From NCBI RefSeq assembly GCF_032854445.1, contig NC_088304.1, positions 1,302,001-1,366,000 on the forward strand: a stretch of DNA of 64,000 nucleotides, in the 5' to 3' direction. Both the position numbers and the translations under genes were made by a program. The DNA comes from Liolophura sinensis. Its lineage: Eukaryota > Mollusca > Polyplacophora > Chitonida > Chitonidae. Positions 16,830 through 55,800 of the stretch are shown here, piece by piece (position 1 is the stretch's first letter; every line of letters starts with the position of its first letter). The notes under the pieces were generated by a model. The model was not told the DNA's origin and ran no database searches. It worked only from the letters and a program-made list of their open reading frames with translations.

Positions 16830-19800
16830 CTACCAACCACAAAAACAATGTTTTACATGAAGCTATGCTAACTGAAACCTGGAGTTTACAAGAGCTAACA
16901 AACCTGAGAAAATACTTATTTCAATGTTGTTCACTCTGGAATATTTCATTTATATATTGGCAGTCAGTTTTATATTTGGAGGAAACTGGAGTACCCAGGT
17001 AAACCACTGACCTTTGGCACATTACTGACCCACTTTGCTACATGTGACATACAGACATGCTCAACATAGTATTGGAGGACAAGTGCATGTATAGTAAAAC
17101 AAATAACCATTTTTTTTAGCCCTTGCTACATCTTCTTTATGGCAGACACTAGAGAATGTCACAGATATCACAGTAGTCATTCTCCCTGACTGTGGGTAGT
17201 GGTACAAGAGCCTTTGCTGTAAACTTCAGTTTCTGAAAACTAACATGTTGTGGAGAGCACCGCACAAGTAAACTACTTTGGAGATCTTCTTTCGATTTTG
17301 ACAAAGACTGCTTTAAATCTCGCCTGTGTGCTACAGCTTTCAGGAATTTAGGCACACACACAAATCGTCATGGTTACTCAGCATGCTCTGTTTTAATTTG
17401 GGAATTTAGAGGCCTAATATTATTAGGAACTGTTAAATACATGAACGTAGACTACCTTACACGGTGTAAATCATTTCGCCACATACACTATCACAGGCAA
17501 TCAAGGTACCAGCTGGTATGTGACACTTGCAGCCACGATCCTCAAAATAGCGACAGCGCATCAATAACTTTTCGTGACACAAAACTAACTTACCTCTGAG
17601 TGGCTGACTGAGATGGACAGATTGAGGTTAAGAGCACTAAGGGCTTACCTCTGAGTCACTGACTGGGGCAGACAGATTGAGGTTAGCCATGTCCAGAGAG
17701 AGAAACACAGGATCCAGGTTCTGAGAGGCCACATGCAGACCTTGTGCCCCCTTCTCCAACCCCTCCACTAGCTGTGTGAAGTTCCCAAAACTCACAGGCT
17801 GAAATATTAAGACTTTCAGACTAAGAACAAAAGATCTCAAAACTAACAGGCTGTGACACACAAAAATTCTCCTGACTAAGGACAAACGTTCTCCTAACTA
17901 AGGACAAAAGTTCTCCTGACTGTGGATGAAAGTTCTCCTGACTGTGGTTGAAAGTTCTCATGACCATGGATGAAAGTTCTCATGACCGTGGATGAAAGTT
18001 CTCATGACCGTGGATGAAAGTTCTTATGACTGTGGACAAAAGTTCTCATGACTGTGGACAAAGCTGACACACAAATGTCTAGTCCAAACATGCAAATTGT
18101 CAGAACTTTTCTTACTGGACATATTCACTGATTGGTTGATTGATTGGTGTTTAATGCCATGCTCCTGAATTTTTCAGTTAAATGATGGAGCTCAGGTTTA
18201 TGCGTGGAGGTAACCGGAGTATCTGGAATAAACTGACCTTCAGCAGGTATCTAACAAACCTTTGGGGCTAAAAGCTGCAGAAACAGTTAGAGCTGGGTTT
18301 GAACACACGACCTTATTCATCAAAAGCTTTAAGAGCTGTAAGATCCCATACCACCCCCACCCACCACCCCCCATGCTACAGGCTGAAACAGTTAAGTTAT
18401 CAAAATAGTTAAAAATCTAGTTAAGAATTCATGGATTCTCATATCAAGACAAGCAGAACTGCATAAGGTGAAAACTTAGACACACAGAAAAGTTTGTTCA
18501 GCCATGATAATTATAATTTCCTTTCAATGAACAACCTTGTTGGCTGAGATACCAAATTGTATCACCAAGTGCTCAATGTCCCAGCAAACTCAGTTACCAT
18601 TCTCTCAGTTACCATTCTCTCAGTAACATCTTTGAGTTATCATTCTCTCAGTTACCATTCTCTAAGTAACATCTCTGAGTTACCATTATCTCAGTTACCA
18701 TTCTCTAAGTAACATCTCTCAGTTACCATTCTTTAAGTTACCATTCTCTCAGTTACCACTCTCTAAGTAACATCCCTCAGTTACCCTTCTCTAAGTAACA
18801 CCTCTGTTACCATTCTCTCAGTTACCACTCTCTAAGTAACATTTCTCAACTACCATTATCTCAGTTACCATTCTCTCAGTTACCATTCTCTAAGTAACAT
18901 CTCTCAGTTACTTTTCTCTCAGTTACCATTCTCCCAGTTACCATTCTCTGTTACTACTATCTCAGTTACCATTCCCTCAATAACATCTCTCCAGTGATGT
19001 TTTCTGAAGGACAAGGTCATAATTTAAATTTTTGCTCACAGGAGAATATGAAAATAAAACTGGAAAAACAGTTAATGCCTGAGAAGTGTGGAGCGTGTCA
19101 GTAATTGCTCCTGTTAAAAACATGTTCCTGTTAAAAAACGGACATTTTTTATTTTTATTTCATTTGTGGATTCTTTCTTTTTTTTGCTTCACCTCGCTCG
19201 TAAATAGGGCTGGCATAACATATTTATCATTATCATATTTATTTCTCACACTGAAGTACATGTATCACACTGAAGTACATTTATCACACTGAAGTACATT
19301 TCTCACACTGAAGTACATTTATCACACTGAAGTACATTTCTCACACTGAAGTACATTTATCACACTGAAGTACATTTATCACAATGAAGAACATTTCCTC
19401 TGAACCGTGGCAATGGTTAACATAAGTGGATAGAGTTCAGGTCTGCAAGCACTGAGAGAGCATACAGCAGTCAAACAACAAAACCTAACTTACCACAGGT
19501 AATGACGAGTCTTTCTTCTTTTTCTGTTTCTTCGTGAAGGCTGTTTTGAGCGGTTTGAGAAGGCGGTGACATACGCCTGCTAATACTGTTGCATGGGCCA
19601 GGCTCTGTAATGTAACAACAACAGTAACACTGTCACAGCTGACACACGGATAGACTGGTGTGTACTAGTATGTCAAAGAATGCAGGACTAGATTTCCAGA
19701 AAATCATAAATGATTTTGCCAAAACAGTACATAAATACATGTCATACACATTATTTGAGCAGCTAAAAGATATTTTTCGAATAGGTCATCATCCAACCAT

Positions 19801-22800
19801 CCAAACAAACCTCAAAACACCTTTCTGAGATCAAAAAAATTCTGTGAACGGGGCAAAATGAATCCCTATGTAGTGGACCTCCCTGCCACCCAATGTGTCC
19901 AAACACACCAGTGCAGAATCCAGTGTTTAAAAGATGATTTTACTCAGCTGACAAAAATCCTCAGGAAACAAAAAACAAAACATAACCCCATCAGACTATT
20001 TTTTTGGATGCTGTTATCAGCTTATTTGTTTTAATATTTCCAATTCCAACCTTCTCACCTCAGCTGACATGACAAACTGCTCTATAACTTCATGGTGAAG
20101 AGAACAGCCAGAGTCTTCCTGAAGGATGAGTTTACAGTCCTGACTCCACACCAACTCTGCCATACAAACAGTTTTCATTCAGAAGATTTCTTATATACAT
20201 AAATTCAAAACATTTTCCATTTCTTAACAGATGATGTTCTATTTATTTATTTATCTGATTGGTCTTTTAGGCCGTGCTCGAGAATATTTCACTTATACGA
20301 CGGCGGCCAGCATAACTCTGGGTGGAAACCGGGCAGAGCTCGGAGGGGAACCCACGACCATCCGCAGATTGCTGGCAGACCTTCCCACGTACGGCCAGAG
20401 AGGAAATGATGTTCTACAGCACTTGCATCTAAACATTACACTATCCCAAGGCATGTCCTCTTTTTCTTTTTTCTTTTCTGTAATACATCATTGAATCTGC
20501 ATACACTGTAATTGCGCTCTTACAGTACTTTGGTTAGAGAATGATGTGTTTTTACACAGCTTGGTACTCGCTTGTCTACAAACGGCACGAAATCACGCTC
20601 GTTACAGGAATGGGATGATTTAATTCTCAACTTCTTTCAAAAAAGACAAAAACCGCTAAAATGTTCACATCCTAAAACTTACTTGACCAGCATTATACAG
20701 CGCTACAGTTAGGCTGAGTTCCTCTTCTACCCACCATTGACTAGCGCTACAGTTAGGCTGAGTTCCTCTTCTACTCACCATTAACTAGCTCTACACTTAG
20801 GCTGAGTTCCTCTTCTACTCACTGTTAACTAGCCCTACAGTTAGGCTGAGTTCCTCTTCTACTCACCATTAACTAGCCCTACAGTTAGACTGAGTTCTTC
20901 TTCTACTCACCATTAACTAGCCCTACAGTTAGGCTGAGTTCCTCTTCTACTCACCATTAACTAGCTCTACACTTAGGCTTAGTTCCTCTTCTACCCACCA
21001 TTAACTAGCCCTACAGTTAGGCTGAGTTCCTCTTCTACCCACCATTGACTAGCGCTACACTTAGGCTGAGTTCCTCTTCTACCCACCATTGACTAGCGCT
21101 ACAGTTAGGCTGAGTTCCTCTTCTACCTACCATTGACTAGCTCTACACTTAGGCTGAGTTCCTCTTCTACCCACCATTAACTAGCTCTACACTTAGGCTG
21201 AGTTCTTCTACTCACTATTAACTAGCGCTACAGTTAGGCTGAGTTCCTCTTCTACCCACCATTGACTAGCCCTACAGTTAGGCTGAGTTCCTCTTCTACT
21301 CACCACTGACTAGCGCTACAGTTAGGCTGAGTTCCTCTTCTACCCACCATTAACTAGCTCTACACTTAGGCTTAGTTCCTCTTCTACCTACCATTGACTA
21401 GCTCTACACTTAGGCTGAGTTCCTCTTCTACTCACCATTAACTAGCTCTACACTTAGGCTGAGTTCTTCTACTCACTATTAACTAGCGCTACAGTTAGGC
21501 TGAGTTCCTCTTCTACCCACCATTGACTAGCCCTACAGTTAGGCTGAGTTCCTCTTCTACCCATCATTAACTAGCTCTACAGTTAGGCTGAGTTCCTCTT
21601 CTACTCACCATTAACTAGCCCTGCACTTAGGCTGGGTTCTTCTTCTACTCACCATTAACTAGCCCTACAGTTAGGCTGATTTCCTCTTCTACTCCCCATT
21701 AACTAGCTCTACTCTTAGGCTGAGTTCTTCTACTCACCATTAACTAGCGCTACACTTAGGCTGAGTTCCTCTTCTACCCACCATTGACTAGCTCTACACT
21801 TAGGCTGAGTTCCTCTTCTACTCACCATTAACTAGCCCTACAGTCAGACTGAGTTCCTCTTCTACCCACCATTAACTAGCCCTACAGTCAGACTGAGTTC
21901 CTCTTCTACCCACCATTGACTAGCGCTACAGTCAGGCTGTTCCTCTTCTACTCACCATTAACTAGCTCTACACTTAGGCTGAGTTCTTCTTCTACTCACC
22001 ATTGACTAGCCCTACAGTCATACTGAGTTCCTCTTCTACCCACCATAAACTAGCCCTACAGTTAGGCTGTTCCTCTTCTACCTACCATTGACTAGCTCTA
22101 CACTTAGGCTTAGTTCCTCTTCTACCTACCATTGACTAGCTCTACACTTAGGCTGAGTTCCTCTTCTACTCACCATTAACTAGTTCTACACTTAGGCTGA
22201 GTTCTTCTTCTACTCACCATTGACTAGCCCTACAGTCATACTGAGTTCCTCTTCTACCCACCATAAACTAGCCCTACAGTTAGGCTGAGTTCCTCTTCTA
22301 CCTACCATTGACTAGCTCTACACTTAGGCTTAGTTCCTCTTCTACCTACCATTGACTAGCTCTACACTTAGGCTGAGTTCCTCTTCTACTCACCATTAAC
22401 TAGCTCTACACTTAGGCTGAGTTCTTCTACTCCCCATTGACTAGTGCTACAGTTAGGCTGAGTTCCTCTTCTACCCACCATTAACTAGCTCTACACTTAG
22501 GCTTAGTTCCTCTTCTACCTACCATTGACTAGCTCTACACTTAGGCTGAGTTCCTCTTCTACTCACCATTAACTAGCTCTACACTTAGGCTGAGTTCTTC
22601 TACTCACTATTAACTAGCGCTACAGTTAGGCTGAGTTCCTCTTCTACCCACCATTGACTAGCCCTACAGTTAGGCTGAGTTCCTCTTCTACCCATCATTA
22701 ACTAGCTCTACAGTTAGGCTGAGTTCCTCTTCTACTCACCATTAACTAGCCCTGCACTTAGGCTGGGTTCTTCTTCTACTCACCATTAACTAGCTCTACA

Positions 22801-25800
22801 CTTAGGCTGAGTTCCTCTTCTACTCCCCATTAACTAGCTCTACACTTAGGCTGAGTTCCTCTTCTACCCACCATTGACTAGCTCTACACTTAGGCTGAGT
22901 ACCTCTTCTACTCACCATTAACTAGCCCTACAGTCAGACTGAGTTCCTCTTCTACCCACCATTAACTAGCCCTACAGTCAGGCTGAGTTCCTCTTCTACC
23001 CACCATTGACTAGCGCTACAGTCAGGCTGTTCCTCTTCTACTCACCATTAACTAGCTCTACACTTAGGCTGAGTTCTTCTTCTACTCACCATTGACTAGC
23101 CCTACAGTCATACTTAGTTCCTCTTCTACCCACCATAAACTAGCCCTACAGTTAGGCTGAGTTCCTCTTCTACTCACCATTGACTAGCCCTACAGTCAGA
23201 CTGAGTTCCTCTTCTACCCACCATTGACTAGCCCTACAGTTAGGCTGAGTTCCTCTTCTACTCCCCATTGACTAGCACTACAGTCAGGCTGAGTTCCTCT
23301 TCTACTCACTGTTAACTAGCCCTACAGTTAGGCTGAATTCCTCTTCTACTCCCCATTAACTAGCTCTACACTTAGGCTTAGTTCCTCTTCTACCTACCAT
23401 TGACTAGCGCTACAGTTAGGCTGAGTTCTTCTTCTACTCCCCATTAACTAGCTCTACACTTAGGCTTAGTTCCTCTTCTACCTACCATTGACTAGCACTA
23501 CAGTTAGGCTGAGTTCCTCTTCTACTCCCCATTAACTAGCTCTACACTTAGGCTGAGTTCTTTTTCTACCCACCATTGACTAGCGCTACAGTCAGACTGA
23601 GTTCCTCTTCTACTCACCATTGACAAGCCCTACAGTCAGACTGAGTTCCTCTTCTACTCACCATTAACTAGCGCTACAGTTAGGCTGAGTTCCTCTTCTA
23701 CCCACCATTGACTAGCGCTACAGTTAGGCTGAGTTCTTCTTCAACTCACCATTAACTAGCTCTACACTTAGGCTGAGTTCTTCTTCTACTCACCATTGAC
23801 TAGCGCTACAATCAGACTGAGTTCCTCTTCTACTCCCCATTAACCAGCCCTACAGTTACGCTGAGTTCCTCTTCTACTCACCATTGACTAGCGCTACAGT
23901 TAGGCTGAGTTTCTCTTCTACACACCATTAACTAGCGCTACAGTCAGGCTGAGCTCCTCTTCTACTCACCATTAAATAGCCCTACAGTCAGACTGAGTTC
24001 TTCTTCTACTCACCATTGACTAGCGCTACAATCAGACTGAGTTCCTCTTCTACCCACCATTCACTAGCGCTACAGTTACGCTGAGTTCCTTTTCTACCCA
24101 CCATTGACTAGCGCTACAGTTAGGCTGAGTTTCTCTTCTACACACCATTAACTAGCGCTACAGTTAGGCTGAGCTCCTCTTCTACTCACCATTAACTAGT
24201 CCTCCAGCTGAGGTCCTCAGTCGTTCCTCTAATGTGCTGTCTATCCGCTCTACAGCAAAACAAATAAACAATTACACGTATCATTCAGAGCTGACCTCTT
24301 CAGCTGCTGGTACAGGTAATGTCAAACTGCGATCATACATCTGAAGTAATCCTTTTTTTTTTTTTTTTGTTGGAAATAGCACTCTAAAAAAAGTTCTAAC
24401 AGGTATTGCTTTTCATAAAATACTGTCTTTAACCTAATAATTCATCCCAGAAGGTGCACTTTCCGAGGCCAATAAATGTCACAATATATAACTTTTGGTT
24501 ACGAAACTTACACTTTTTGTATAAACACCTTTCCAAATTTTGTAAAATGAGTAGCTTTCTCATGGACAAGATATTAATGCATCAGTTGCAGAAACCCATT
24601 CAATAAATACTTACCTAGACCTTCTTCTCTTAGTGTTTGACAATAGAAAACGTTCTCCACCATTTCTATAAATAATTTACTATGTAGACCGCTGAGATAA
24701 GAGGAGAGTCTTGTCCTGAAGGGCCCTTGTAACGGGTACTGTGGGGCAGAAAACACCACCATCACTAACATAGGATAGAGTACTCTCCCATCATTTCATC
24801 AATGTCTCATTTCTTCATCTATTTGTTTGTTGTGTGATGCAATACCACATTTTTTAAACTCCTACAAAAGCAGTCAACTCAACGCGTTCAGAAAACTAGT
24901 GTCTCGGGAGTAACCAGCTAGCCTTCAGCAAGCTACTGGCAAACTTTCCCATGTGTGACAAGGTTTTCCCATCACGTGTGACATGGTTTTCCCATCATGT
25001 GCAACATGGTTTTGCCCTCATGAGTGACATGGTTTTCCCATCACGTGCGACATGGTTTTCCCCATCATGTGTCATATCACGTGTCACATGGTTTTCCCAT
25101 CACGTGTGACAAGGTTTTCACGTCACGTCCAACATGGTTTTGTCGTCATGAGTGACGGGGTTTTCCATCATATGTCACATGGTTTGCCCATCACATGTGA
25201 CAGGTCTACCTGTGCGCAGTGTACATGGCGAATTCAGAAATACTTTGGATCAAATTCAGCAAATTAAAACTCGTATTAGAACTTATTAACATTTTGTATC
25301 TATACTTTTTTTTATTAGATTGAAATGTACATGACATTTAGTCCCCTGAGAAAGTTGCAATGGTGGATATACACAAGTGAAGAATTCTTTGGACATGAAG
25401 AAGAAAATTAATTTTTAAATGACATAGGCAGTAAATCACCTACAGCTTCATGACATTTTTCACCAACTAATCATTCTGTTGTACTAAGTTGGTGAAAATC
25501 AAATTTGAATTTTTTGCAATTAATATGAATATATAAGGTCACATGACTTTTCACAAGCTACTGAGCCTTCTGTACTACAGTTCGTACACCAAGGTGATTA
25601 GCTGGTAAAAATTCCATGAAATAACGAGGGACTTATTATACACAGTGTAGAGTCCTTTATGTGTACACTGGGATGTATTTGTGGGAAATGCATAGCTTAC
25701 ATCGGCAGGTGTTGCAAACTGCTGCTGACACGCCTCCAGGTGTGACTTCAGCTGACTGAAGAGCGTGTGCAGCACTTGCGTCATGCTGGGCTTGCTGTTG

Positions 25801-28800
25801 TCGTTTACGCCATTGTTAGCGTGGTCGTGAGATGTTGAAGATTTTCCTAATGAGATGGCTGCTGCTAAGATCCTTAGCTGTAAATTACGTAACTTCAGCC
25901 AAGCTTTCTGCAATGAGGTATGAAGTCGCATATACATTTATTATACGTAAGTGCAAAAAATTCACAAACAATAAGGCGCAGAAAATTACACAAACAATAA
26001 GGTGCAGAAAATTACACAAACAATAAGGCGCAGAAAATTACACAAATTTCTCTGAAATCATCTATAAAACTGACGTTTTCCCAGTAGGCTATCATCCCAC
26101 TTTCCAAACAAACATTAAACCATCTTTCTAAAATCAACAAAACTCTCAGAATCTGGAGAAATGAGCCAAACAGTCATGGATAATATTCAAGGTTAGGTAT
26201 CGCTTAACTCCACACGGGAACTTTTCCCTTATAGAACTGTTTTATACGTCAAGGCATCAGCAGTCCCTGGTGTAAATCATCAAGCGTGGATAGTTACTGG
26301 TAAACTTTCCAGCGTGTGACATAAAGATATTCACACATTACTCGAGAAGACAAGTGATCGTCAATGAATCTTGCTCGACTGCAAAAATGGTGACTTGTGC
26401 ATCATCAACAGGTTGTTGTCACCAGGGCCTCACAAACAGTGAGCGAATGAATGAGTGAATGAATGAGTGAAACCTTTATTTAAAGAGTTTAGCTCTGTCA
26501 AATTTAACAATTTGCTCTTCCCAGAGGCCCTCTACAACAATACATGAACAAGTACAAACAGTATATACAATTCCATCTTTTAAAACATGAAAACAGTCAA
26601 TAATATATAACTACATTTATCAGCTAATATAAATTTACTGGCTGAAATAATTTTTCAAATAAACTGACTTACACTCAGAAAGTGATGGTGCTGTTTCGAT
26701 TAGACATTCTAAACTGTTACAAGCATGACAGCTCACTACTGTAAAACTTTTTTTTATAATAGTTATGTTTATCAATATGAAGGTTGTTAACAGTTGATCT
26801 GAGACACTTACAGCGTACTGCTGTGTTTTTAACAAGTAATTCTTTTAGATATAGTGGTAACTGATCATGAAATGATTTAAACAGTGACAGGAGAATGACA
26901 GGAGAATAAATATTTGTATACAACAAGAGAGAAGGAAACTAACACTGGAGCCCAATGGTTTAATACCACAGTGTCACAGAATTTAAATTCATCTCCCACC
27001 ACCTCCGTCTAGGCCCTTGACTCCATGGAAATACAAAAACTTACCTCTTCTTCAAACGATTTTAACTTGATTTCTTCCAAATTTATTCTGTGAAATGAAA
27101 GCACAAAAAACTCAGATTCAACAGGCCACTTCCGACACATTTACAGCAAGGAAAAAAAAATATGGAAAACATGGAAAGAAAAGATTTAACTTTAACCCAC
27201 ACTGCCATGGTCAATGTTTTTGAGAACAAAGAAAATCCTTTGTGGAGATAATTTAACTCTGATCAAATCTGCAGTAAAAGACCTCAAATTCTGATCAAAA
27301 AACTGAAATTTTACTGGTAACAATACTTTCACTGCTGAAACTTACATCATTCTGGTAACATACAATGTGATCTTCCAAACAAATCCCAAAACCCTTTTCT
27401 AAAATGAAGATGGAACTCTCAGAATCTGGACAAAAGCTTAAACTTAGCCATGGGCAAAATTTGAAGTCATTTTGTCAAAAGTAAACTTACAAGTGAGGTG
27501 GGTCCCAAGTTAGCATCACAGTGAAATCCCTGTTGTCACACAGCTCATCAAAATCTGTCTTGTCTGAAAAGGAATGAGACTCTCTTACAGCTGCATACAA
27601 GAGTGGTAACAGGACTGAATCAATGGCAGGGGTTTAGCCTCGTTCTTATAATCTGTGGTATACCTGGTCTGCTCTCAATATAAGCGTAACTGTAGCCATG
27701 ATATTTAGCTTCCTTTTTTCACATGGTTAGTCCATCCAATGAATGACATATTCATATCTTTACTTTTCACAAAAACAAAAAAACAAAAAATAAAACAGGA
27801 GAGAAGAGTTATGCATGTGTTATGTGCATGCGTTTTTAACAGTTTACAATGTACTGATAACATACTGCCACCCTGACACTCTCTAATCCATACTGTGGCA
27901 AAAGTGGTTACAAGGAATCACAAGGCTTCACTGTATCATATGTCTGACAGCCTTCTGATGGGCTGTTCTCTTTAAGACCAGAGAAATGAATGCTACATGT
28001 TGTCCAGTGAATAAAGTTTAGGATATAACAGCTGCTGCCTGTGAGGTAGACTGTTTAAAGTTCAGGTAGTAACGGCTGCTGCCTGTGAGGTAAACTGTTT
28101 AAAGTTCAGGTAGTAACGGCTGCTGCCTGTGAGGTAGACTGTTTAAAGTTCAGGTAGTAACGGCTGCTGCCTGTGAGGTAAACTGTTTAAAGTTCAGGAA
28201 GTAACGGCTGCTGCCAGTGAGGTAGACTGTTTAAAGTTGAGGTAGTAACGGCTGCTGCCAGTGAGGTAGACTGTTTAAAGTTCAGGATGTAACGGCTGCT
28301 GCCAGTGAGGTAGACTGTTTTAAGTTCAGGATATAACAGCTGCTGCCTGTGAGGTAAACTGTTTAAAGTTCAGGATGTAACGGCTGCTGCCAGTGAGGTA
28401 GACTGTTTAAAGTTCAGGTAGTAACGGCTGCTGCCAGTGAGGTAGACTGTTTAAAGTTTAGGATATAACGGCTGCTGCCAGTGAGGTAGACTGTTTAAAG
28501 TTCAGGATATTATGGCTGCTGCCTGTGAGGTAGACTGTTTAAAGTTTAGGATATAACGACTGCTGCCAGTGAGGTAGACTGTTTAAAGTTCAGGATATTA
28601 TGGCTGCTGCCTGTGAGGTAGACTGTTTAAAGTTCAGGAAGTAATGGCTGCTCCCAGTGAGCTAGACTGTTTAAAGTTCAGGATGTAACGGCTGCTGCCA
28701 GTGAGGTAGACTGTTTAAAGTTCAGGAAGTAACGGCTGCTGCCAGTGAGGTAGACTGTTTAAAGTTCAGGAAGTAACGGCTGCTGCCAGTGAGGTACATG

Positions 28801-31800
28801 TAGACTGTTTAAAGTTCAGGATTTAACGGCTGCTGCCAGTGAGGTAGACCGTAAAGTTCAGGATGAAATGCTGCTGCCAGTGAGGTAAACTGTTTAAAGT
28901 TCAGGATGTAACGGCTGCTGCCAGTGAGGTAGACTGTTTAAAACAATGTGGAATTACTTTATTTATTCATCGTTGTCTAACATCATTATTCTCAGTGACA
29001 CAAAAATAGCCAAACTGAGCCTGGTTAACCTCTCCTAAAGCTGGGACACAATAGAGAAACTAATAAAACTACAAAGTCTTTTCAGTATGCCACAACCTGG
29101 AACTGAACACAGGTCTCCTGCATACCAGGCAGACACTCTAACCTCTCAGCCATCACAAGGATGTATCAACTGTAGTAAACCTACCCTTCTCAGGATCTAT
29201 CTCCATATAAGACATCATCTGCTCTGTACTATTATGGCTGAAAAAAACAAAAACAGCAGATAAATATTGGCCAACTTTTAATGAGAATTAACATCTATAT
29301 CTCAAAGATAAAAAAGCTTCTAGGGCATAAGAGACATGAAATTCTGCCCACTTAGGACTTAATTACCCATTTTTAACATGCACAATGAATAAGCTGAACC
29401 CTCTGTAAGATGTAATCCTTTATAAGCTACAATGTGTAGAATTATTAAAGATTAGTTCAGTTTTTAAATAAGACATACACACAAGAAGCAAAAAATACAT
29501 ACTTTCAGATAAAAGAGTTGGCTAAATTTAACACAGTAATCACATGCCAAAATTGGCTACTCTAATTTTCAACTGAATAAAATAGAAAAGAATTTACCTG
29601 TTTGTTTCTAACACTAGATCCAGCACCAAACGTTCTGCTGTTGCTGTGGCAAACTGAAGCGAGTTTTGCAGCTTTTCTCGGAATTTTACAAATTCAAAAA
29701 TCTGGCAAAGAAAACAGGTACATTTGTAGCAAGAAAATGGTCTAAAGTGAAAAAAAAAACTGAAAATGACAAATGACACCTATGAAATGCATCACTCCAC
29801 AAAAATAGTCATCATCAGAATTGGTCACAACAGGTTTCACAAATAAGACCCGTCTCAAACAGCGTTCTGCAATACATTCAGATCCATTTTAATAACATTA
29901 TTTATCACATTGTTGCTGAATGCCACACTGAAGAATTTTACACCTATAGGGAGCTGATCAGTTTTATCAGTGTAGGAACCTTGTAGTATAGAAAAACCAC
30001 CGACTTTTAGCAAGTTACAAATGAACTTTTCTTGGTGAAGTTTCTTGATGAAGTACAGATGTGCACACCATACTGGTGGAAGTCAAGCAGAATAAGTTAT
30101 TGTAACCATGGGCCCACACAGACCGAGACTGTAACCACAGGCCCACAAAGACAAATTGTAACCACGAACCCACAAAGACTGAGACTGTAACCACAGGCCC
30201 ACAAAGACCGAGATTGTAACCACAGGCCCACAAAGACCGAGATTGTAACCACGAACCCACAAAGACTGAGACTGTAACCATGAACCCACAAAGACCGAGA
30301 TCGTAACCATGGGTCCACAAAGACCAAGATTGTAACCACGAACCCACAAAGACTGAGACTGAAACCATGAATCCACAGAGACCGAGACTGTAACCATGGG
30401 TCCACAAAGACCAAGACTGTAACCACAGGCCCACAAAGACCGAGATTGTAACCACGAACCCACAAAGACTGAGACTGAAACCATGAACCCAAAAGACCAA
30501 GATCATAACCATGGGTCCACAAAGACCGAGACTGTAACCATGGGTCCACAAAGACCGAGATTGTAACCACGAACCCACAAAGACTGAGATTGTAACCGAG
30601 ATCGTAACCATGGGTCCACAAAGACCGAGAGCAGCAAATTAAACCAGTACCTAAATCAGGTTTGTGATCAAAGAAAATCAGTGATAGATTAAGGACACAA
30701 CCAAACTAGACAAGATCTCTGAATTGATTTATCAATTTGATATGAGAATACTTTACTTATACAACGACAGCCAGCATTAAGGTGGAAGGAAATCTTGAAG
30801 AGCTTGGGGAGACCTACAACCATCGGCAGGTTGCTGGAAGACCATCCAACATACAACTAGAGAGGAAACATCCCTGAAAAGCCCTCTGACATAAGACTAC
30901 AACCAAACTAGCAACGGTGGAATCCGGCACAGAACTTCAAGGGCCTGTCATATGAAATGTGAGTGACACCTTTCACACCTGAGCCAGGCTAGAGCCCCAG
31001 TAAGTGTATGACACTACACAGAAATGGTAATCTTTCCTACCTTTGTAAATGATCCATATTTATAAGATGAGATGAGATATTCAGCAGTCTGTGAACAAAA
31101 ACACACACACAAAAAAAATAAGTATAATGTTATACTAGAAAAAAATACGTATAAAATTCGTCCATGACCAAAAGAGGTTTGTCTGAAAAGTGGTTTGTCT
31201 GAAGAGTGCCTGTAGGATTATATCCTCCTGGGAAAATGTCAGCTTCTATTTGTCACTAAAAATGAAATATTTTGGGCGAAATCTTAGTTCAATTACTGTA
31301 CATTAAGTAATGCTCTGTATTTTCAACCATGTTGATTTACGTAATCTGTACTGCTTCATCTACTTATCTATTTTAACTGGTGTTTTACACTGTACTTAAG
31401 AATATTTCACTTATACAATGGCAGCCAGCATTGTGAGAGGAGCTGGGCAGAGCCCGGGAGAAAACCACGGCCATCCACGGGTTGCTGCCAGACTTTTCCA
31501 CCCACGGCCAAGAGAGGAAGCCAGCATGTACTGGACTTGAACTCACAGCAACCACATTGGTGGGAGGCTCCTGGTCATCGCGCTGCGCTGATGTGCTAAC
31601 ACCCTCAACCACAGAGGCCCATAATATTGCAAAAAGAATTATTATTTATTTCCCCTTCTCCTAAATGGCAACTTTATCTCATGAAAGGGACTTAAGACAA
31701 TGGAATTTTTCTTCCCTGCCTGACTGATCTTAGCCGAGTTCTCATTTCAAGAGGTAAAATTTCACTATTTGTTTTGACTCCTCAGTAGTATACCTCTTTA

Positions 31801-43800: not shown

Positions 43801-46800
43801 CTGTCTGGTATAGATCAGTAATTATATCCACTTCTTCAGAGTTATTTTATAACCTGCCTGGTATGGATCAGTAATTATATCCACTTCCTCAGAGTTATTT
43901 TATAACCTGCCTGGTATGAATCAGTAATTATATCCACTTACTCCAAGTTATTTTATAACCTGCCTGGTATAGATCAGTAGTTATATCCACTTACTACGAG
44001 TTATTTTATAACCTGCCTGGTATAGATCAGTAATTATATCCACTTACTCCAAGTTATTTTATAACCTGCCTGGTATAGATCAGTAATTATATCCACTTCC
44101 TCAGAGTTATTTTATAACCTGCCTGGTATGGATCAGTAATTATATCCACTTACTCCAAGTTATTTTATAACCTGCCTGGTATGAATCAGTAATTATATCC
44201 ACTTACTCTGAGTTATTTTATAACCTGCCTGGTATAGATCAGTAATTACATCCACTTACTCTGAGTTATTTTATAACCTGTCTGGTATAGATCAGTAATT
44301 ATATCCACTTCTTCAGAGTTATTTTATAACCTGCCTGGTATGGATCAGTAATTATATCCACTTACTCCGAGTTATTTTAACACACAATGGGTTTCATCCC
44401 TACCATAATCTGATCCTCATCTGTCAACAGATCAATGAACATCTTCAAGTCGTTAAAACAACTGTTCTTATCACCAAAAAGCTCAAAAAACTTCTGACAT
44501 AAATCAAGAGGAGTCCCTGAAAATGGAAGAAAAAAATCCCAAATTAGATGTAAAATTAATCAGATATCTACAGTTTTAATTAATGGCACCTACATTTAGT
44601 AGTACAATAAGTTCCTAGTGACAAAGCCTATCCTGTGATCTCTGAAATCAGTTGTTAGGAACACGTGCATAAATTACTGCAACTAACTTCAGTTATTCAT
44701 GAATTAGTTTTACTTCTCAAAGAGTCAGTATATCTGCACAAGGATTATACTTTCATTTCAAATCCCACGGGTGTAAATTACTGCCTTATTCAAGATTGTT
44801 TTGCTTAACTTTCAATCTAAATGTAGTTTATGATTATTAAAAAGGTGTAAAACAGTGAAAACCATGTGTGAGTGTCTCGCCGCCCACTGGATTACCTAAC
44901 TTGGTGATGTCCTTGCAGTTTTTCTGCTGCAGACGTTTCAACAGCTCCAGTTCTGCCAGGTACGGCCCCCGTCTCAAGCGGCCATCTTGGACATATTTTT
45001 TCACGTCCTGATGTACAAACTGTATGGCCATATCCAGTGTGTGGTCAATCTTCTCGGAACTGAACACAAAACAAAACTTACTGTATCATTTTTAACACCT
45101 TAATCACGTGTTACATAACTCAGATTTAGTAGCAAGGCTACCCAGGAGTTCACCTGCAGGAGACACATGAACGCAAAAATCCAGCTCAATACATAAGGTA
45201 CCGAAATCATGAGTTTGGTAATTTACAGTAATTAGTATGGTCACATGACATCAGTGATGGAAATCCCCCTTGTGTCAATGTGCTTTATATGCATGTAAAA
45301 CTTCAGCTCAATGCATGTGGTACTTTTTGAGATACCACTGATTCTAACACATGAAGTCATGAATTTTGCAGTTTACGGTATTTAATTAATGATGGAATAC
45401 CCCCCTCATATTACTGTGCTCTTCATGCGTCCAACCCCTGAGCTCAACACATGCTGCACTTTTTAAGATACCACCTATAACAGTTTGTTCAAGATTGTTT
45501 TCCCTGTTAACGGATGCTGATGCCAATGCCTGGGATTAACTATGCCTGAACTTTGTACAGGTGAGCTAAAAATGAAGCAATTCCTCATTTAATTTTTGGT
45601 ATGAAAATGTTCCTTGGCATGTTGACCTATTACCAGACCTCCAGATTAACCGTCAGCAAGATGAAAATAACTTTGACAGACAACATGGCAGATGTCACAC
45701 AACTCCTGAGAGTAGACGATTTAATGAACTTGTGTGAAACCCGTGACATCAATGCCGCTGATGGTCATTTTACCCACAACGTTCTGTCAATGGAGAATCA
45801 TTTATCCTGTTCCCAAGACTCAGCGAAAGTATGGAAAAGTGAATAAAATAATCAATCAGTAAATTAGAGACCTATTCTGGCAAACTCATTAAATTTCAAA
45901 GCAAAATTTTGACAATGTTTTACTTCCGACCTTGTTAACTATATAGAAGTATACTGTTGCTTATAAACAAATCCATATCATCACAGCCCATAGTAGACTC
46001 ATCATAAAGAGAAATCACATCACCACATTGTGAGAAATTGCCACTTGCTCTGATTATCTTTTTTCAGTACTTATTTTATCACAGACCTTGACTGGTTTGT
46101 TAGTGCTCTTTAAAGGATACATGAAATGCTTTGTTTTATATCTTAATGTGCAGATTACCATGTGTGATAACATAACAGTATAAACAAATCTTTTCAATTT
46201 CACTTGGGGGGGAGGGGGGGGGAAGGGCTTCGAAGAACAGTTTTCTTAAGGCCACTGAAGTCAGTCCAAAAAATTAAGTAGCTTGCAGTAGTGACATCAA
46301 CAATGATCCATTTTTAAAAAGAACTCTGTGGGTAACAGACTGAAAGGGTTTGGCCGATTAAGGGGTGGGGGTGAGGGGCACAAATCGAATTAGGGCACGG
46401 AGGTGGCGCTAAGAGGTGGCATCTGTGTACGTCATTCTGTCCACACTGCAGCGACACGGTTCGCTGGGTTCAGAGCACTCCCGGGGGTGTTCACCGAGTT
46501 GTGAGCAAAGATCAATGATGACGTAATTTCCAAAAAAATCTGACTGTTGATGGAAAATATGCATAACATAGAGGGGTAATTAACAAGTACAAAAATACCC
46601 TCAAAATGAAATTTTTTAACAACCATTCCAGGGCATAATTTTCTTCATTTGGCACAGAAACATAATCTTTGTTTTAAGACTCCCTTTTCATATATCCTTT
46701 AAACTTTGCCTCCTGCCATTCCTGGGGTCTGCTTTAGAAAGCTGTCAGTGTTATTTATCTCTTCATCATATGTTGCTATAGGTGTTACTACAGGTGCACA

Positions 46801-49800
46801 TTGCCACTTCTCCGTGAGATTTATTTATTTATTTATTTGATTGGTGTTTTACACCGTACTCAAAATTATTTCGCTTACACGATGGCGGCCAGCATTATGG
46901 TGGGAGGAAACCCACGACCATCTGCAAGTTGTTGCCAGACCTTCCCACATGCGGCCGGAGAAGCTTAGTAAGACAAGCCCCCTGAGAGATGCAATTACGT
47001 AACTCACCTGTCTTCGCTGGGGGTCCACTGTGAGTCTATCAGACTAAATACTGCTTGCAGGTAACCCAGCCAGTTCTGCCAGTCGTCTGGGCTAAAGGGT
47101 GGTAAAACAAAACACATCTGTGTCTAAGTGGGGGCAGGTACAAGGGACATAACTCTGACATTCTTCTCATGTTTAAGAGTCTAGGAAATACATGGGAAAC
47201 ACAGACTATCCAACTTTATATTTAGACACTTGTATAAAAAATGTAAACCAACTTCTTTAGCAGGATAGTCAGGTTCCGACAGTACAGAATTAGTGAAAAT
47301 GAGCCTGAACTGTAAGAAGAGGCAGGTTTTCTGAGAAATGTTTTTTTCTTCAGAAAGATGGAATTTTTCATAACACATCTTGGAGGACTGAGCGTAAAAG
47401 TTTGGTTTAACTTTAAAGTGAACTTAAAGTGTGCCACTATATATACATACAATAAAGGATGTAGGACACAGTTATCACCGAAAAATATGAAAAAAATTCT
47501 ATAAAGTTTTGGGAGACTGTAGCAACTTGTCACAGTGAGCGAGTAAGGGGACCGCCTCGGAAGTCATTGCTTGAAGAAAAATATTTTGACTTTGCATCAT
47601 TTTTCCATAGCAAAGTCAGATTTATTACGAAAATGTCTTCCCCACATCTGAATGAAAGAGTATTTTATAAATCAGAAGGTCCTGGTATGTTCGGTAAATT
47701 GTGGCTAGGTTCTGACAATTTTTTTAACTATTTATTTTGTTGATAAGCAATGTAGAATTTTTAAAATATTTTGAGACCATTTCTGGAATACTACCTTATT
47801 ATTTAATTCAGATTTAGAGGCTGTCTTTACGTTCACTTTAATCTTGTCACAACACAATTGGGAAAAAGGTTCCACTGACACATGATTCACTGGTCAGTTA
47901 TTTTGTCTTGAAACCACTCACGAGAGCTTAAAAAAAAGTATTGTCAGATGGACTGCTGAAAACTATATTTAAGAGAACTTATACTGTATTTTTAGACTTT
48001 ATTAGATTGAATTATATGCACCTGCAGTTACAGCTGAAACTTCTAGGAACATTATGCCAGTGATCTTTAAAGGAGAAGAAAATTTTTTTTAAAATGACAC
48101 TACAGGCCGAAAAAAGCACATTTTTTTCTATCTGGTAGTCCCTGCTGCATAATTTTGCCAATTTTCCCTGTAATTTATGTTGGGGGGGGTGTTGCCTCTC
48201 GCCCAATGAGAGTTAAAACTGCTGGCTTGTTCGTGTAAACTTGGAACCTACGTCCAACATTCCAGTTTCCCGATCGTCAAGTGGAAAATGAACTGTACTG
48301 TTCGCTACCTTCTGGGAAGAAGAGTTCTACTGGAAATGTACGAACTGCACTTCGACGGTTACCGATGGCAATTCTCCTCCTAAGACAGAAGACTTCAGGA
48401 CTAGTTCTTAGGCAAAATGGAGTCACCCACAGCGGATGTTGGCACTAACTTTATTTATAATTTATCAATATGAGGTACATATTAGAATTTTTTTTATGAC
48501 ATGCACCTGCAAGGAAATGCATACTCATTTGAATGGTATTTGATTGATATTTCAATTTTCTTCTCCTTGTGCATTAAGAGATATTGTAACATTAAAAACT
48601 GTGCTCACGGTGGGAAAACTTCATGTGACGTCACAGTACCCAAACACTAGCCATAAGTTTTCATAAAACCAACAGTTTTGAATGCATTTACTCACTTTAA
48701 CAGAAATCCAAAGTATCTTTGAAGAGAGTTGTCAATTCTACTCTGGTGAGCCTTACTTCACTTTTACATATTTTTTCACTTTTTAAACTCCCAGACTGCA
48801 GTAAAACCATGATCGGTATTCCAACTGTAACAATAACTACTTACTCTCTGATCAAGTTTTCCTTGCATGCCACGTTTGCCTCAGGCCACCTCTCCAGCTT
48901 GCACAGAAGATCTGCCGACTTCTTGGACACAAAATGTAGCTCACTCACTAACTTCTCTGTGAATGAAAAATTCAACACCTAACTAATGATTGGCTCATTC
49001 ACCAACTGACTGATGATTGGCTCATTCACCAACTGACTGATGATTCGCTCATTCACCAACTAACTGATGATTCGCTCATTCACCAACTAACTGATGATTG
49101 GCTCATTCACCAACTGACTGATGATTGGCTCATTCACCAACTGAGTGATGACTGGCTCATTCACCAAATGACTGATAACTTGCTCATTCACCAACTGATT
49201 TATGACTGGCCCATTTACCAACTGACTGATGACAGGCTCATTCACCAACTGACTGATGACAGGCTCATTCACCAACTAACTAAAGATTCGCTCATTCACC
49301 AACTAACTGATGATTTGCTTATTCACCAACTGACTGATGACGAACTCTTTCACCAGCTAACTGTTGATTTTCTCATTCACAAACTAACTGGCTCATTCAC
49401 CAACTAACTGATGATTTGCTCATTCACCAACTGGCTGGCTCATTCGCCAAATGACTGTGATTGGCTCATTCACAAACAACTGATTCATTTCTGGCTCACA
49501 CTGATGATATAGTCCAAAAGTAAATCAAATGTACACAGCAAACGTACCCCCAAGTGGACTTTGTATGACCCTCAAGGCTTCCTCAGTGTGCCCCAGCAGC
49601 TCCAGGATGATCAAGTACATCTGTACCTCTGTAACAGCAAAACATTTAGTACATGGATATCTACTTTCTGTTTCAGTAAAAACACACATGACCATCCAAA
49701 TCATGGCTTATTTATTTATTTATTTGATTGGTGTTTTACGCCATACTCAAGAATATTTCAATTGTACGACTGCGGCCAGCATTATGGTGGGCAGAGGCCA

Positions 49801-52800
49801 GGGGAAACCCACGGCCATCCGTGGGTTGGTGGCAGACCTTCCCATGTACGGCCTCATGGCTGACACATTTAAAAATTATATTGTTGAAATTGGTCTTGAA
49901 CGAACGTTAGACTGTGCAAACTGCCATACAGACCTGTATCTTAAGAGCTATAATTGTTTGTATGTATTGTAAGAAGGCAAGTGAACGACAGTACATACCA
50001 GCCTAAACCTAAAATTTCGCCCATGATTCTGGGACTTCTAATGATCTCATTTTGCCTGATTCTGGGAGCTCAAATGATCTCATTTTGCCTGATTCTGGGA
50101 GCTCTAAAGATCTCATTTTGCCTGAGTCTGGGAGTTCTAATGATCTCATTTTGCCTGATTCTGAGAGCTGCATGATTTCATTTTGCCTGATTCTGAGAGC
50201 TCTATGATCTCATATTGCCTGATTCTGGGAGCTCAAATGATCTCATTTTGCCTGATTCTGGGAGCCCTAACGATCTCGTTTTGCCTGATTCTGAGAGCTC
50301 TATGATCTCATTTTGCCTGATTCTGGGAGCTCAAATGATCTCATTTTGCCTGATTCTGGGAGCCCTAACGATCTCGTTTTGCCTGATTCTGAGAGCTCTA
50401 TGATCTCATTTTGCCTGATTCTGGGAGCTCAAATGATCTCATTTTGCCTGATTCTGGGAGCCCTAATGATCTCGTTTTACTTGATTCTGGGAGCTCAAAT
50501 GATCTTGGGAATCTGTTTGAGGTTTACTTGGAAGGTAAATGATATCCTCTAGCACAAATGTAATCTTTCAGCACTGAAGCAATATTTTATGATTATATTC
50601 TATTTATTTGCTCTTAAAAACACATTTTTTTCTCAATCTTATAGGACATTAGCCTTTCTTGACCTACATTTCTTACCTGCTTCTGCCTCAATTTTCTCCT
50701 CTTTGACATACTTCTGTGTCATCCTCTCTGCTAACGGTAGAAACATAGTGTGCGACAGTTTCTTATCCTTTGTCGAATGTGCCTAGAATGGAAAAATGGT
50801 ATTTCTGAACATTTTATACTTCAAACGATCCTTGTGGTGTTGGTCTCACAGATATCAAGAAATTCCTAACCTCTAGCTTGAATACCCAAGTTTGTATTTA
50901 ATGAAATCAGAAAATGATTAATGTAACCTCAGGTGTATCTACTGCATTTGATCCACACTGTGTAATTTCATCCTTCGCTTTCATTTCTCAAGATTCTGAA
51001 ATTTCTAATAATGCTTGAAAGTTAATTTGAAGATATTTGTGGAAAGAAAAATGATATTCTACCTGGAAAATGCAGGTTTCAGCAAGAAAAGTGACATGAC
51101 ATCTATTTGCCTCTATACATGCACATTTTCAGCCAATTTCAGCAAGTCATTTACAGCATAAATATATAAAGCTTAGAAATACTGGCAAACTGCATTGTAA
51201 GCCAAACAACGGATGAATGGGCATTGGTCTCTCCTTACTTGCATGACTATGCTCATGACCGCCCAGAAGTAATAGGGGTTTTTGTTCGGCCGCAGTTTGT
51301 GAAGGACCATGGCAGTCTGTTGCTGTTTCTTGTAGTCCCCCTGACGCACGTACGCCATGAACAGCGCTGAGAGAATCTCCTCATTGTCAGGTCGACCTTT
51401 GAACGCATTCTCATACAAATCTACGATCAAGTCCACTGGAAAATAGAAATGGGAATCGTTAGCTTTTAATGATGAGAATGAAAACCACTTTGGCAGATTT
51501 ACAGCCAAATCTATGATCAAGTCCACTGGAAAATAGCAATGGGAATCGTTAGCTTCTAATGATGAGAATGAAAACCACTTTGGCAGATTTACAGCCAAAT
51601 CTATGATCAAGTCCACTGGAAAATAGCAATGGGAATCGTTAGCTTTTAATGATGAGAATGAACACCACTTTGGCAGATTTACAGCCAAATCTATGATCAA
51701 GTCCACTGGAAAATAGTAATGGGAATCGTTAGCTTCTAATGATGAGAATGAACACCACTTTGGCAGATTTACAGCCAAATCTATGATCAAGTCCACTGGA
51801 AAACAGAAATGGGAATCGTTTGCTTCTAATGATGAGAATGAACACCACTTTGGCAGATTTACAGCCAAATCTATGATCAAGTCCACTGGAAAATAGCAAT
51901 GGGAATTGTTAGCTTCTAATGATGAGAATAAACACCACTTTGGTAGATTTACAGCCAAATCTACGATCTAGTCCACTGGAAAATAGCAATGGGAATCGTT
52001 AGCTTGTAATGATCAAAACGAACACCACTTTGGTAAATTTACAGCCAACGCTACGATCAAGTCCACTGAAAACCAGAAATGGGAATCGTTAGCTTCTAAT
52101 GATGAGAATGAACACCACTTTGGCAGATTTACAGCCAAATCTATGATCAAGTCCACTGGAAAATAGCAATGGGAATCGTTAGCTTCTAATGATGAGAATA
52201 AACACCACTTTGGCAGATTTACAGCCAAATCTACGATCAAGTCCACTGGAAAATAGCAATGGGAATCGTTAGCTTCTAATGATGAGAATAAACACCACTT
52301 TGGCAGATTTACAGCCAACTCTACGATCAAGTCCACTGGAAAATAGAAATGGGAATCGTTAGCTTCTAATGATGAGAATAAACACCACTTTGGCAGATTT
52401 ACAGCCAAATCTATGATCAAGTCCACTGGAAAATAGCAATAGGAATTGTTAGCTTCTAATGATCAAAACGAACACCACTTTGGTAAATTTACAGCCAACG
52501 CTACGATCAAGTCAACTGAAAATCAGAAATGGGAATCGTTAGCTTCTAATGATGAGAATGAACACCACTTTGGCAGATTTACAGCCAAATCTATGATCAA
52601 GTCCACTGGAAAATAGCAATGGGAATCGTTAGCTTCTAATGATGAGAATAAACACCACTTTGGCAGATTTACAGCCAAATCTACGATCAAGTCCACTGGA
52701 AAATAGCAATGGGAATCGTTAGCTTCTAATGATGAGAATAAACACCACTTTGGCAGATTTACAGCCAACTCTACGATCAAGTCCACTGGAAAACAGAAAT

Positions 52801-55800
52801 GGGGACATTCACACCACATTTACAGCAGTATGGTGGTGAGTGGAATGGTGCATGTCTCAATATTCATGAGAACAAAGGTTGAAAAAAAAAATGGTAGATG
52901 TCATTTAAAATATCCAAGTTATCTACATGTGCATGCAAACACAGAAAAAGTACTGTGTAATAATGATAATAGTGTTGGGTACAGTAAATAATACACTGGT
53001 CTGTTAATTTACCGTTTTACCTTTTGTCATCCATGAACTGACAAGGCAAACTTCCAATTAAATGACAGCTAAATGTCATCAGGGAACATTATTAGAAACC
53101 AGTAACCAGATTTATCAGTTTACGACATGTTAAGACTTGACGTACGATATAAAATGACTGACTTAACGTACACTTATGCACTTCTCTGTAGCAGATGGCC
53201 ATGGCATGTAATGTCGCCTCATCTGTCGGGTGCTGGGCGTGAACCTCCTGTAGGAACCCTGAACTCTCATCATGACGACCCAGGCGTAACAAAGCCAGCG
53301 CCTTTAACACCTGTTCTCAGACATAAGCACAAATAAGGGTGAAGCCTCAACAACAACTGTTCCAAAGAAAAATTTTTAATCTGAACAAATACTTGAAATT
53401 TAATAACAATTAATTTCCAATGTCCTCCCAGCAATAGAATGCTTTTTCCGCAAAGAGTACAACACCACAACATGTACTGATATTTATCTGATTGGTGTTT
53501 TACGCCGTACTTAAGAATATATTATTAAAAATAATAAGCTGATGCAATGTTTTCACTGAGTGAGACAGGGCATTAAGAGGTGGTAATGAGGTCATGATGT
53601 GACAATTATGAACAGCTTACATCCCATCTGTAACGCTATACACGTACCTTCGCACACTGAAAATCCTTCTGTTTCCTCAATACTTTCTCAGCTTCCTGGA
53701 TTGCTTTCTTGTTGTTTCCATTGTCAAGGCAGTCTACAAGAAGTATCGTCAAGTATAGAAGTAATTTTTTTATGTTACATAAACTAGAGACAATATTATC
53801 TCCTTACTAAGTAACAGATGGCATGGGCCAAAAAAATCCCCCCCCCACCACCCCCCGGGCTCCATAATGTTATATCATAGGAAAATGAACATTTCTGATG
53901 GTCACTCAGGGAGAGGAAAACATGGGACTTCAACATGGGGTGGCCATTTTGTTTTCGCCCATGCCACAGGTCGTCCTACAGAATTCTTCTAAAATTTAAC
54001 ATCTTTGTAAGATCATTTAACATCTTTGATTTCATAAGCGTCTAGGTTTACCTATTTCATTAGCTTCTAGGTTTACCTATTTCGTTTGGACTTTTCACTA
54101 TAACTAGAACTAACACGTACAGCGGATATTGTGATAAGCTTAACAGCACGCTGCAGTTCTAGTCAGAGGTTGGTCCATTCTTAGAATCTGTTTTCATGAG
54201 TATGACGCATATGCCAGGAGCAATTCGTGCGCACACAATGGAAGGTGTGCAGTTTAACGTGAAAGCACGAACAGAGATGAGGTGTCGAAGATTTTGTTCA
54301 TTTAAACATTGTCTAAAATGGACTTAATATGCAAAAATAAGACCACATATGAGGAAAGCGGCACTATGACTACTAAAATATCAGTGGAAAAAGAGTACAA
54401 GATGGGTAATTTAGCATTAGCAACGTTGTTTGGAAAATCTTAATCAGTCCAACTATATAGACTTCTCACTATTACTGCTGCAGGCCATAAGGCATATCAC
54501 ATTATCTGCTGGAAGTTCTAGTTTCAAAATTTGTACTAAAATTTGATGCAAACACTGGCTGTTGTGTAGACAACAGAAGTTGTGCTACTCTGAAAAAATG
54601 AAAGCTTCAATGACTCAATATTTCAGCATTTTATTTCCCCATCATCAGGTGATTAGATTTTGCCAATAACTTTTGATGAGGGCAAAATAAAATTGTGAAA
54701 TACTGACTCGCTTTTTTTCAGAGGGACACTACTTGTGCGATCGAGATCCACATGTGTGTCCTTCAATCGCATGAGGCAGTGGCAAGCAGACAGGGAGGTA
54801 AAGAATGAGATGGGAAGGTAAAGAGACACAATTTTGGATGATATTCAGAGAACTATGGCTGATAATATTCGGAAATAATAGTATGTTTGACAACCGAGCA
54901 ATCTGGACACCATATGTTAATTGTGAATGTCAACAAAAGCTGGTTTTGGACTTAAGAGGCATTAAGCCCTGGACGACAACACTTGTAGGGCCTGGCGTTG
55001 TCATGGCTGGGTTCCCTTTAGATCACTGGGATGAATTGTAAAATTTAGGAAAACAGTCCATTAGGAACCTACCTCGCCCATCCAGCCACTACTTTACAAT
55101 GCTTCGCATCCTTGGGCACCTGACTTAAAATCCTGAGACCATCCCTAAGGTAAATATCCATCATATTTATTGAAGTCTCCCTCTATGATGACTTCTCATT
55201 TACAAAATAGCCGACATCTACACGGTGCGCATGCGCAGGCAGGCAGTTGGCAACAAAACTATCCCTCCCTTCAATTATGCTGTTTATAAAGTCCCTTTGT
55301 TTATTATGCGATCACACGCTGGCTAGTTTTAGTCACCTTGACTTTAGATGGTACAAATGGCGCATCATGAACCAAACTAGAGCACGTGCCATTGTTTTGA
55401 CATGTGTGACCTCCACAAATGAAGCCAGTAATGGCCAGCCATTGTGTATCCAGTTGCCTGGCTGCGCATGCCCGCCATGTAAATGAGAAGTCAATGAAGA
55501 GGGAGATTCAAATAAATATGGATGGATACTTACCTTTGGGGGATTGACATCTCAGGATTTTACCAGTCAGGTGCCCCACATCCCTAAGCATTGTACACTA
55601 GTGGCTGGATGGGCAAGACAGGTTAGTAATCGACTGTTTTCCAAAGTTTGACAATTCATCCTACCGCGCCGAAGGGGACCCAGCCATGACTACATGAGGC
55701 CCTACAATTAAATTTACAGTTATTTTATCACCGCAAGTTAGGCATGTTAGCGCCCAAAACGGCCAATGCCCAGATGTTCCCAGTGTTGAATCAAGTGAAA

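What the first reader, a model, noticed from the sequence alone, without database searches (positions are those of the whole stretch)
17588..52805. Recurrent minisatellites seeded by NAA25 splice junctions
At least five arrays in one gene (exons 4, 11, 13, 24, 27; probably also 7) are built from units that include a piece of the adjacent exon, the splice site and flanking intron. Arrays elsewhere could be chance. Independent units of 90, 137, 86, 44 and 55 bp each containing a junction suggest either a mechanism that starts duplication at splice junctions, or tolerance of such duplications because the outermost site is still used. I know of no described system of this kind.
Basis: partly seen in the sequence, partly recalled or inferred. 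Interest (0 to 1): 0.88.

Follow-up and report, generated by a model that had tools for sequence, protein, structure and literature searches.

The report
Splice-junction minisatellites in a chiton gene
In a chiton, short DNA stretches that include the edge of an exon and its splice signal have been copied over and over, up to about 80 times in one intron; this kind of repeat was already known from amphioxus, and here it looks like ordinary minisatellite growth that splicing tolerates.

Summary
The window is the NAA25 gene of the chiton Liolophura sinensis (28 coding exons, minus strand). Tandem arrays span the exon 4 acceptor (90 bp x15.4) and the donors of exons 11 (137 bp x4), 13 (86 bp x7.8) and 24 (44 bp x80). 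Exon 27 has only a two-copy 55-bp duplication of its donor; the array near exon 7 stops 13 bp short of the junction. Nearly all copies keep AG or GT.

The special reading is weaker. Junction-spanning minisatellites are already described as "mirages" in amphioxus. Arrays cover 16% of 200 kb sampled here. A seed-placement null expects 1.7-1.9 junction arrays in this gene against 4 seen (P 0.08-0.12), or 3.1 (P 0.37) with larger periods as units. In 46 myosin exons, 4 of 92 junctions are spanned against 2.2 expected (P 0.18). A modest excess is not excluded; no junction-seeking mechanism is shown.

Best explanation: randomly seeded minisatellites, kept because the mRNA still uses the outermost site, which gives the shortest exon. 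That choice is inferred from the annotated protein; no RNA was seen. New member of a known kind; no mollusc report in the papers searched.

The parts
16710..56230 (-). NAA25 coding region of Liolophura sinensis, 28 coding exons, 27 GT-AG introns
   Evidence: spliced mapping of P0001, unique solution for each intron; joined exons equal P0001
51416..52803 (-). 90-bp x15.4 array over the exon 4 acceptor (exon 4 = 51435-51239); unit = 70 nt intron with pyrimidine tract and TTTTCCAG, plus 20 nt of exon 4; 16 of 16 copies keep AG, 14 of 16 have CTAAC upstream
   Evidence: TRF; rows; site counts
36963..37504 (-). 137-bp x4 array over the exon 11 donor (exon 11 = 37519-37448); unit holds 57 nt of the exon; 4 of 4 copies keep GT
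   Evidence: TRF; rows; site count
35131..35800 (-). 86-bp x7.8 array over the exon 13 donor (exon 13 = 35858-35769); unit holds 32 nt of the exon; 8 of 8 copies keep CAG|GTAGGT
   Evidence: TRF; rows; site count
20691..24199 (-). 44-bp x80 array over the exon 24 donor (exon 24 = 24249-24190); unit holds 10 nt of the exon; 70 of 81 aligned copies keep GT; unit found only at this locus
   Evidence: TRF; rows; site count; genome search
17589..17685 (-). two-copy 55-bp duplication over the exon 27 donor (exon 27 = 17798-17649); copies 17644-17685 and 17589-17630, 86% identical
   Evidence: second donor CAGAG|GTAAGT
48970..49489 (-). 27-bp intronic array that stops 13.5 nt before the exon 7 acceptor; does not span the junction
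38794..44379 (-). 53-bp x105 intronic array starting 24.5 nt inside the exon 10 donor; does not span the junction

Best explanation
These are minisatellites of the 'mirage' kind. Short tandem duplications arise at many places in this minisatellite-rich genome; some of the first duplicated segments happen to straddle a splice junction. Such a duplication does not change the protein if the spliceosome keeps using the copy joined to the real exon body (the first donor, or the last acceptor: the choice that gives the shortest exon, as exon definition predicts), so it is not removed and can grow like any other array. Shown: array density, a local unit (exon 24), intact extra sites, a protein model with outermost sites, junction frequency close to a random null. 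Inferred: that mRNA really uses those sites, that expansion was by slippage or unequal exchange, and that selection is weak.
For: Array density: 74 arrays in 20 evenly spaced 10-kb stretches of one scaffold, C10 (3.7 per 10 kb, 16% of bases; 12% without one stretch that is wholly satellite). NAA25: 17,819 of 36,614 intron bases lie in arrays. Null: 4 junction arrays against 1.71-1.85 expected, P 0.08-0.12; 3.08 expected, P 0.37, with the largest period as unit. The same thing occurs in other genes: 4 of 46 myosin exons (C1:26644541-26644732 donor, 31 bp; C2:5377145-5378505 acceptor, 32 bp; C3:25740948-25741500 donor, 124 bp; L040 donor, 66 bp), i.e. 4 of 92 predicted junctions against 2.17 expected. 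The exon 24 unit has 51 listed matches, all within C10:1322701-1326199, so it looks home-grown, not dispersed. P0001 splices at the outermost sites and aligns to six mollusc homologues without a repeat-sized insert there. Inner donors of exons 11 (5 of 5 GT sites modelled), 13 (7 of 7), 27 (1 of 1) and 24 (70 of 70) give premature stops; of 15 upstream exon 4 acceptors, 10 give stops and the nearest 5 stay open. Inner sites show no clear decay: GT/AG changes in 0 of 32, 0 of 16, 0 of 8 and 10 of 160 cells (exons 4, 13, 11, 24).
Against: The counts lean above the null in both samples (4 v 1.8; 4 v 2.2), and the excess is nominally significant if exon 27 is added (P 0.03-0.05) or if only units of 25 or 40 nt and more are kept (P 0.045 and 0.009, post hoc). 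No RNA was seen, so use of the outermost site rests on one predicted protein. For exon 4 the used acceptor lies downstream of 15 similar acceptors, most with a branchpoint-like CTAAC, which a simple first-AG rule would not favour.
Confidence: 0.78

Rival explanations
1. A DNA process favours duplication at splice junctions (for example breakage tied to transcription or R-loops near 5' splice sites), so junction arrays exceed chance.
For: Observed counts exceed the null about twofold in both samples; 5 of 21 duplications in NAA25 with exon 27 counted (P 0.03-0.05); units of 40 nt or more 4 of 6 (P 0.009, post hoc); 7 of the 9 junction duplications are at donors. In three of seven donor cases the exon match starts at or within four bases of an AG (E24, C1 myosin, L040).
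Against: P 0.08-0.37 for the four arrays depending on unit choice; 0.18 for the myosin sample. Exon share of the unit has no fixed length. NAA25 was picked for its arrays. Donor bias 7:2 has P 0.18 and is also expected from tolerance.
Confidence: 0.12
2. The extra sites are used: inner copies give alternative transcripts, either in-frame inserts (exon 4, 30 aa per copy) or stop-containing RNAs that tune NAA25 output.
For: Nearest five upstream exon 4 acceptors keep the frame open; nearly all inner sites are intact and many score as well as the true site (30 of 81 copies at exon 24 and 8 of 8 at exon 13, true copy included).
Against: P0001 shows none; substitutions in the exon 4 array are not lowest at codon positions 1 and 2 (0.042, 0.061, 0.040 for positions 1 to 3), so no sign of coding constraint; amphioxus mirages are reported not to disturb splicing.
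Confidence: 0.12
3. Assembly artefact or collapsed alleles.
For: A run of 200 N abuts the C2 myosin array in L031, so arrays may trouble the assembly.
Against: HiFi assembly (passages); copies carry distinct substitutions and indels; the same pattern is in several genes.
Confidence: 0.03

Closest known systems
Amphioxus 'mirages' (Adh3, TnC, BflGb6, BflGb9, PGBD5; PMC3087553 and PMC3902484, passages read; the 2002 Adh paper seen only as a reference, not held)
   Same: Tandem repeats spanning exon-intron boundaries; both 5' and 3' boundaries; repeated AG/GT signals in many copies; units of 10-160 bp; reported regular splicing
   Different: Different phylum; 80 copies over exon 24 here, against 3 to 6 units in BflGb6; several in one gene; no RNA or polymorphism data here
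Human variable internal tandem repeats at exon-intron boundaries in segmental duplications (PMC2812944, passages read)
   Same: Minisatellite units at exon edges, proposed to create new introns or alternative transcripts
   Different: Human paralogues, short arrays (on average 30-bp units repeated 4 times), about half in coding sequence
Ordinary intronic minisatellites of this genome
   Same: Same kind of arrays, with overlapping unit sizes and identities
   Different: Seed unit includes a splice junction

Membership tests
mirage (junction-spanning minisatellite) | repeat unit spans an exon-intron boundary of a real gene | tested here: met
mirage (junction-spanning minisatellite) | many copies keep the splice signal | tested here: met
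   16 of 16, 8 of 8, 4 of 4 and 70 of 81 copies (exons 4, 13, 11, 24)
mirage (junction-spanning minisatellite) | occurs at both donor and acceptor sides | tested here: met
   NAA25 4 donors (one only a two-copy duplication), 1 acceptor; myosin 3 donors, 1 acceptor
mirage (junction-spanning minisatellite) | regular mRNA splicing is not disturbed | tested here: inconclusive
   predicted protein uses outermost sites and homologues agree; no RNA
mirage (junction-spanning minisatellite) | inner copies homogenised, boundary copies less so | tested here: inconclusive
   exon 4: far-end copy 16 of 66 positions off consensus, exon-joined 3 of 90, inner mean 3.9%; exon 13: 3 of 69, 3 of 86, 1.4%; exon 11: 2 of 132, 4 of 137, 1.5%; exon 24: 1 of 10, 2 of 44, 8.0%
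mirage (junction-spanning minisatellite) | length polymorphism, somatic instability | not testable with these tools
   one assembly, no reads
dispersed mobile element | copies elsewhere in the genome | tested here: not met
   exon 24 unit found only at its own locus (lists are lower bounds); other units not tested

The most novel reading that the evidence does not exclude
Duplication in this genome is about twofold enriched at splice junctions, donors above all, through a transcription- or splicing-linked process, giving a chiton genome with many thousands of multiplied splice sites that feed new introns and alternative exons.
Probability: 0.12. Interest if true: 0.8.

Novelty: new member of a known kind. 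Interest (0 to 1): 0.42.

Why it matters
If a few percent of junctions carry up to 80 near-identical competing splice sites, as these small samples suggest, the chiton is a ready natural experiment on how the spliceosome picks one of many equal sites, and on whether tandem duplication of junctions creates introns, an old proposal. It also suggests that the repeat annotation of this genome misses much of it: the assembly paper lists 0.08% under simple repeats and others, with 14.04% unclassified, while TRF finds arrays over 16% of the bases sampled on one scaffold.

Tried and rejected
Exon 7 as a junction array: rejected, 13.5 nt gap. Exon 27 as an array: only two copies. Selection against extra sites: no excess loss of GT/AG. 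Coding constraint in the open exon 4 array: none seen. A 17-nt piece of the exon 13 unit has no other match in the window; possible filler at the first joint, not pursued. Pfam and NCBIfam scans of four and two long ORFs gave only two weak Pfam hits on the repeat ORF, taken as spurious. A first splice-mapping script found nothing because of a bug and was replaced. Random-stretch ORFs: 20 of the 33 candidate ORFs were scanned, 7 had a Pfam match, and 0 of these 7 exons had a spanning array, though several of their edges score poorly. Not in print: the paper searches gave no mollusc report that I recognised; a gastropod haemocyanin intron paper listed has no hit for minisatellite, mirage or tandem repeat (PMC7931591). 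This is a partial library.

The myosin count covers 46 of 81 listed matches: all 26 listed in four gene spans and 20 others with an open frame of 147 aa or less (some more of that kind were left out); 35 were not fetched. Junctions there are predicted by a site matrix near the HMM ends, not by cDNA, and 20 exons were seen with about 200 nt (73 nt on one side of L049) of flank only.

Correction made on re-checking: the single 'open' case at exon 24 was the true donor itself; inner donors are 70 of 70 with a stop.

Full report
What the window is. A draft protein from window ORFs found P0001, NAA25 of Liolophura sinensis, at 87% identity to the draft; the exons of P0001 then mapped to the window and their joined translation equals P0001. 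The window is G000:C10:1302001-1366000 of a 609,464,459-base, 632-contig assembly, the size of the published HiFi and Omni-C assembly of this chiton (PMC11068029, passages; renamed from L. japonica in PMC12441733, passages). Coding exons run from 56230 to 16710 on the minus strand; all 27 introns are GT-AG with a single solution each.

The observation. TRF gives 20 separate arrays inside the gene, 17,938 bases. Four span a junction: the exon 4 acceptor and the donors of exons 11, 13 and 24. In each, the copy joined to the exon is the real exon edge and the rest run into the intron. Exon 27 has one extra copy of its donor. The array beside exon 7 and the 5.6-kb array beside exon 10 stop 13.5 and 24.5 nt from their junctions.

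The extra sites. AG is kept in 16 of 16 exon 4 copies, GT in 8 of 8, 4 of 4 and 70 of 81 copies at exons 13, 11 and 24. GT or AG positions do not change more than the rest of the unit. In the exon 4 array 14 of 16 copies carry CTAAC in the 40 nt before the AG (that CTAAC is branchpoint-like is recalled) with a pyrimidine tract, so the acceptor is multiplied as a whole. All 83 inner donors modelled (exon 11 5, exon 13 7, exon 27 1, exon 24 70) give a stop, as do 10 of 15 upstream exon 4 acceptors; the nearest five acceptors would add 30 aa each in frame. The annotated protein uses the outermost site at all five, and six mollusc homologues show no repeat-sized insert there (P0001 has one or more extra residues inside exon 11 against all six). 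No RNA was available, so the actual choice is inferred.

Is it more than chance? I let each array start from a unit dropped at random into the gene with arrays collapsed to one unit. For 20 arrays the expected number straddling one junction is 1.71, or 1.85 if only placements that spare exons count; 4 were seen, P 0.08-0.10 by simulation and 0.12 by a Poisson formula. With exon 27 counted, 5 against about 2, P 0.03-0.05. With the largest TRF period as unit, 3.1 expected, P 0.37, and 0.22 with exon 27. Cuts chosen afterwards give P 0.045 (units of 25 nt or more) and 0.009 (40 nt or more). The gene was picked because it looked striking, so these values flatter the claim.

A sample chosen without regard to arrays. 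Myosin head exons were located by family search (81 matches) and 46 examined. Four have a spanning array: a 31-bp donor array, a 32-bp acceptor array of about 43 copies beside a run of N, a 124-bp donor array whose unit is about 115 nt of exon and 9 nt of intron, and a 66-bp donor array. That is 4 of 92 predicted junctions; local array density predicts 2.17 (P 0.18), the density of the random stretches 1.58 (P 0.08). Seven further Pfam-confirmed exons in random stretches had none. Junction arrays thus recur in this genome at a rate close to what its array density predicts; an excess of about twofold is neither shown nor excluded.

How it most likely works. Tandem duplication seeds land anywhere; those wholly in exons damage the protein, those in introns or across one junction do not, as long as the copy next to the exon body is used. 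This fits exon definition, which favours the shortest exon: the first donor and the last acceptor (inference). The variable exon share of the unit (10 to about 115 nt) argues against a process tied to a fixed place at the splice site. The surplus of donors (7 of 9) is what tolerance predicts, since an acceptor array places rival acceptors upstream of the true one, but it is not significant (P 0.18).

What is known. Junction-spanning minisatellites are described in amphioxus as mirages, with regular splicing despite repeated signals, length differences between haplotypes, and a proposed role in intron gain (PMC3087553; PMC3902484; passages). Human repeats at exon edges are linked to new introns (PMC2812944; passages). 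The chiton case meets the sequence features of that kind and extends it, in the papers I searched, to a mollusc and to larger copy numbers than the globin example. It is a new member of a known kind.

Noticed in passing
window 20691-24199; L030 541-732 (C1:26644541-26644732); L040 373-586 (reverse strand): In three of seven donor-side cases the exon-matching part of the unit starts at or within four bases of an AG present in both exon and unit (CTAG or CCAG), as if the first duplication joined there; chance or short microhomology not separated.
   Followed up: partly
L009-L028: TRF arrays cover 16% of 200 kb of scaffold C10 (12% without one stretch that is wholly satellite, L021), while the assembly paper lists 0.08% as simple repeats and others and 14.04% as unclassified.
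   Followed up: partly
L031 about 1445-1644 (C2:5376945-5377144): A 200-N run abuts the 43-copy acceptor array of a myosin gene: the assembly seems to break at the array, or the stretch is masked.
   Followed up: no
window 51416-51967: The exon 4 array is open in frame with exon 4 over its last five units (within a 264-aa ORF), so inner acceptors could add 30-aa repeats.
   Followed up: partly
window about 20296-20487, 31388-31645, 46852-47043, 57832-58068, 60147-60348 (minus); L017 2968-3117; L020 6969-7118: ORF fragments reading like 'GKPTTIRRLLTDLPTYGRRGSQHELDLNS' or parts of it recur in introns and other loci: probably a dispersed short interspersed element.
   Followed up: no
C1:26642195-26642299 and C1:26643291-26643386: Two neighbouring exons match nearly the same myosin profile positions (118-152 and 121-152), as expected of mutually exclusive muscle myosin exons.
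   Followed up: no
window 35200-35731: A 17-nt piece of the exon 13 unit matches neither flanking exon nor intron and has no match elsewhere in the window (up to 3 mismatches).
   Followed up: partly
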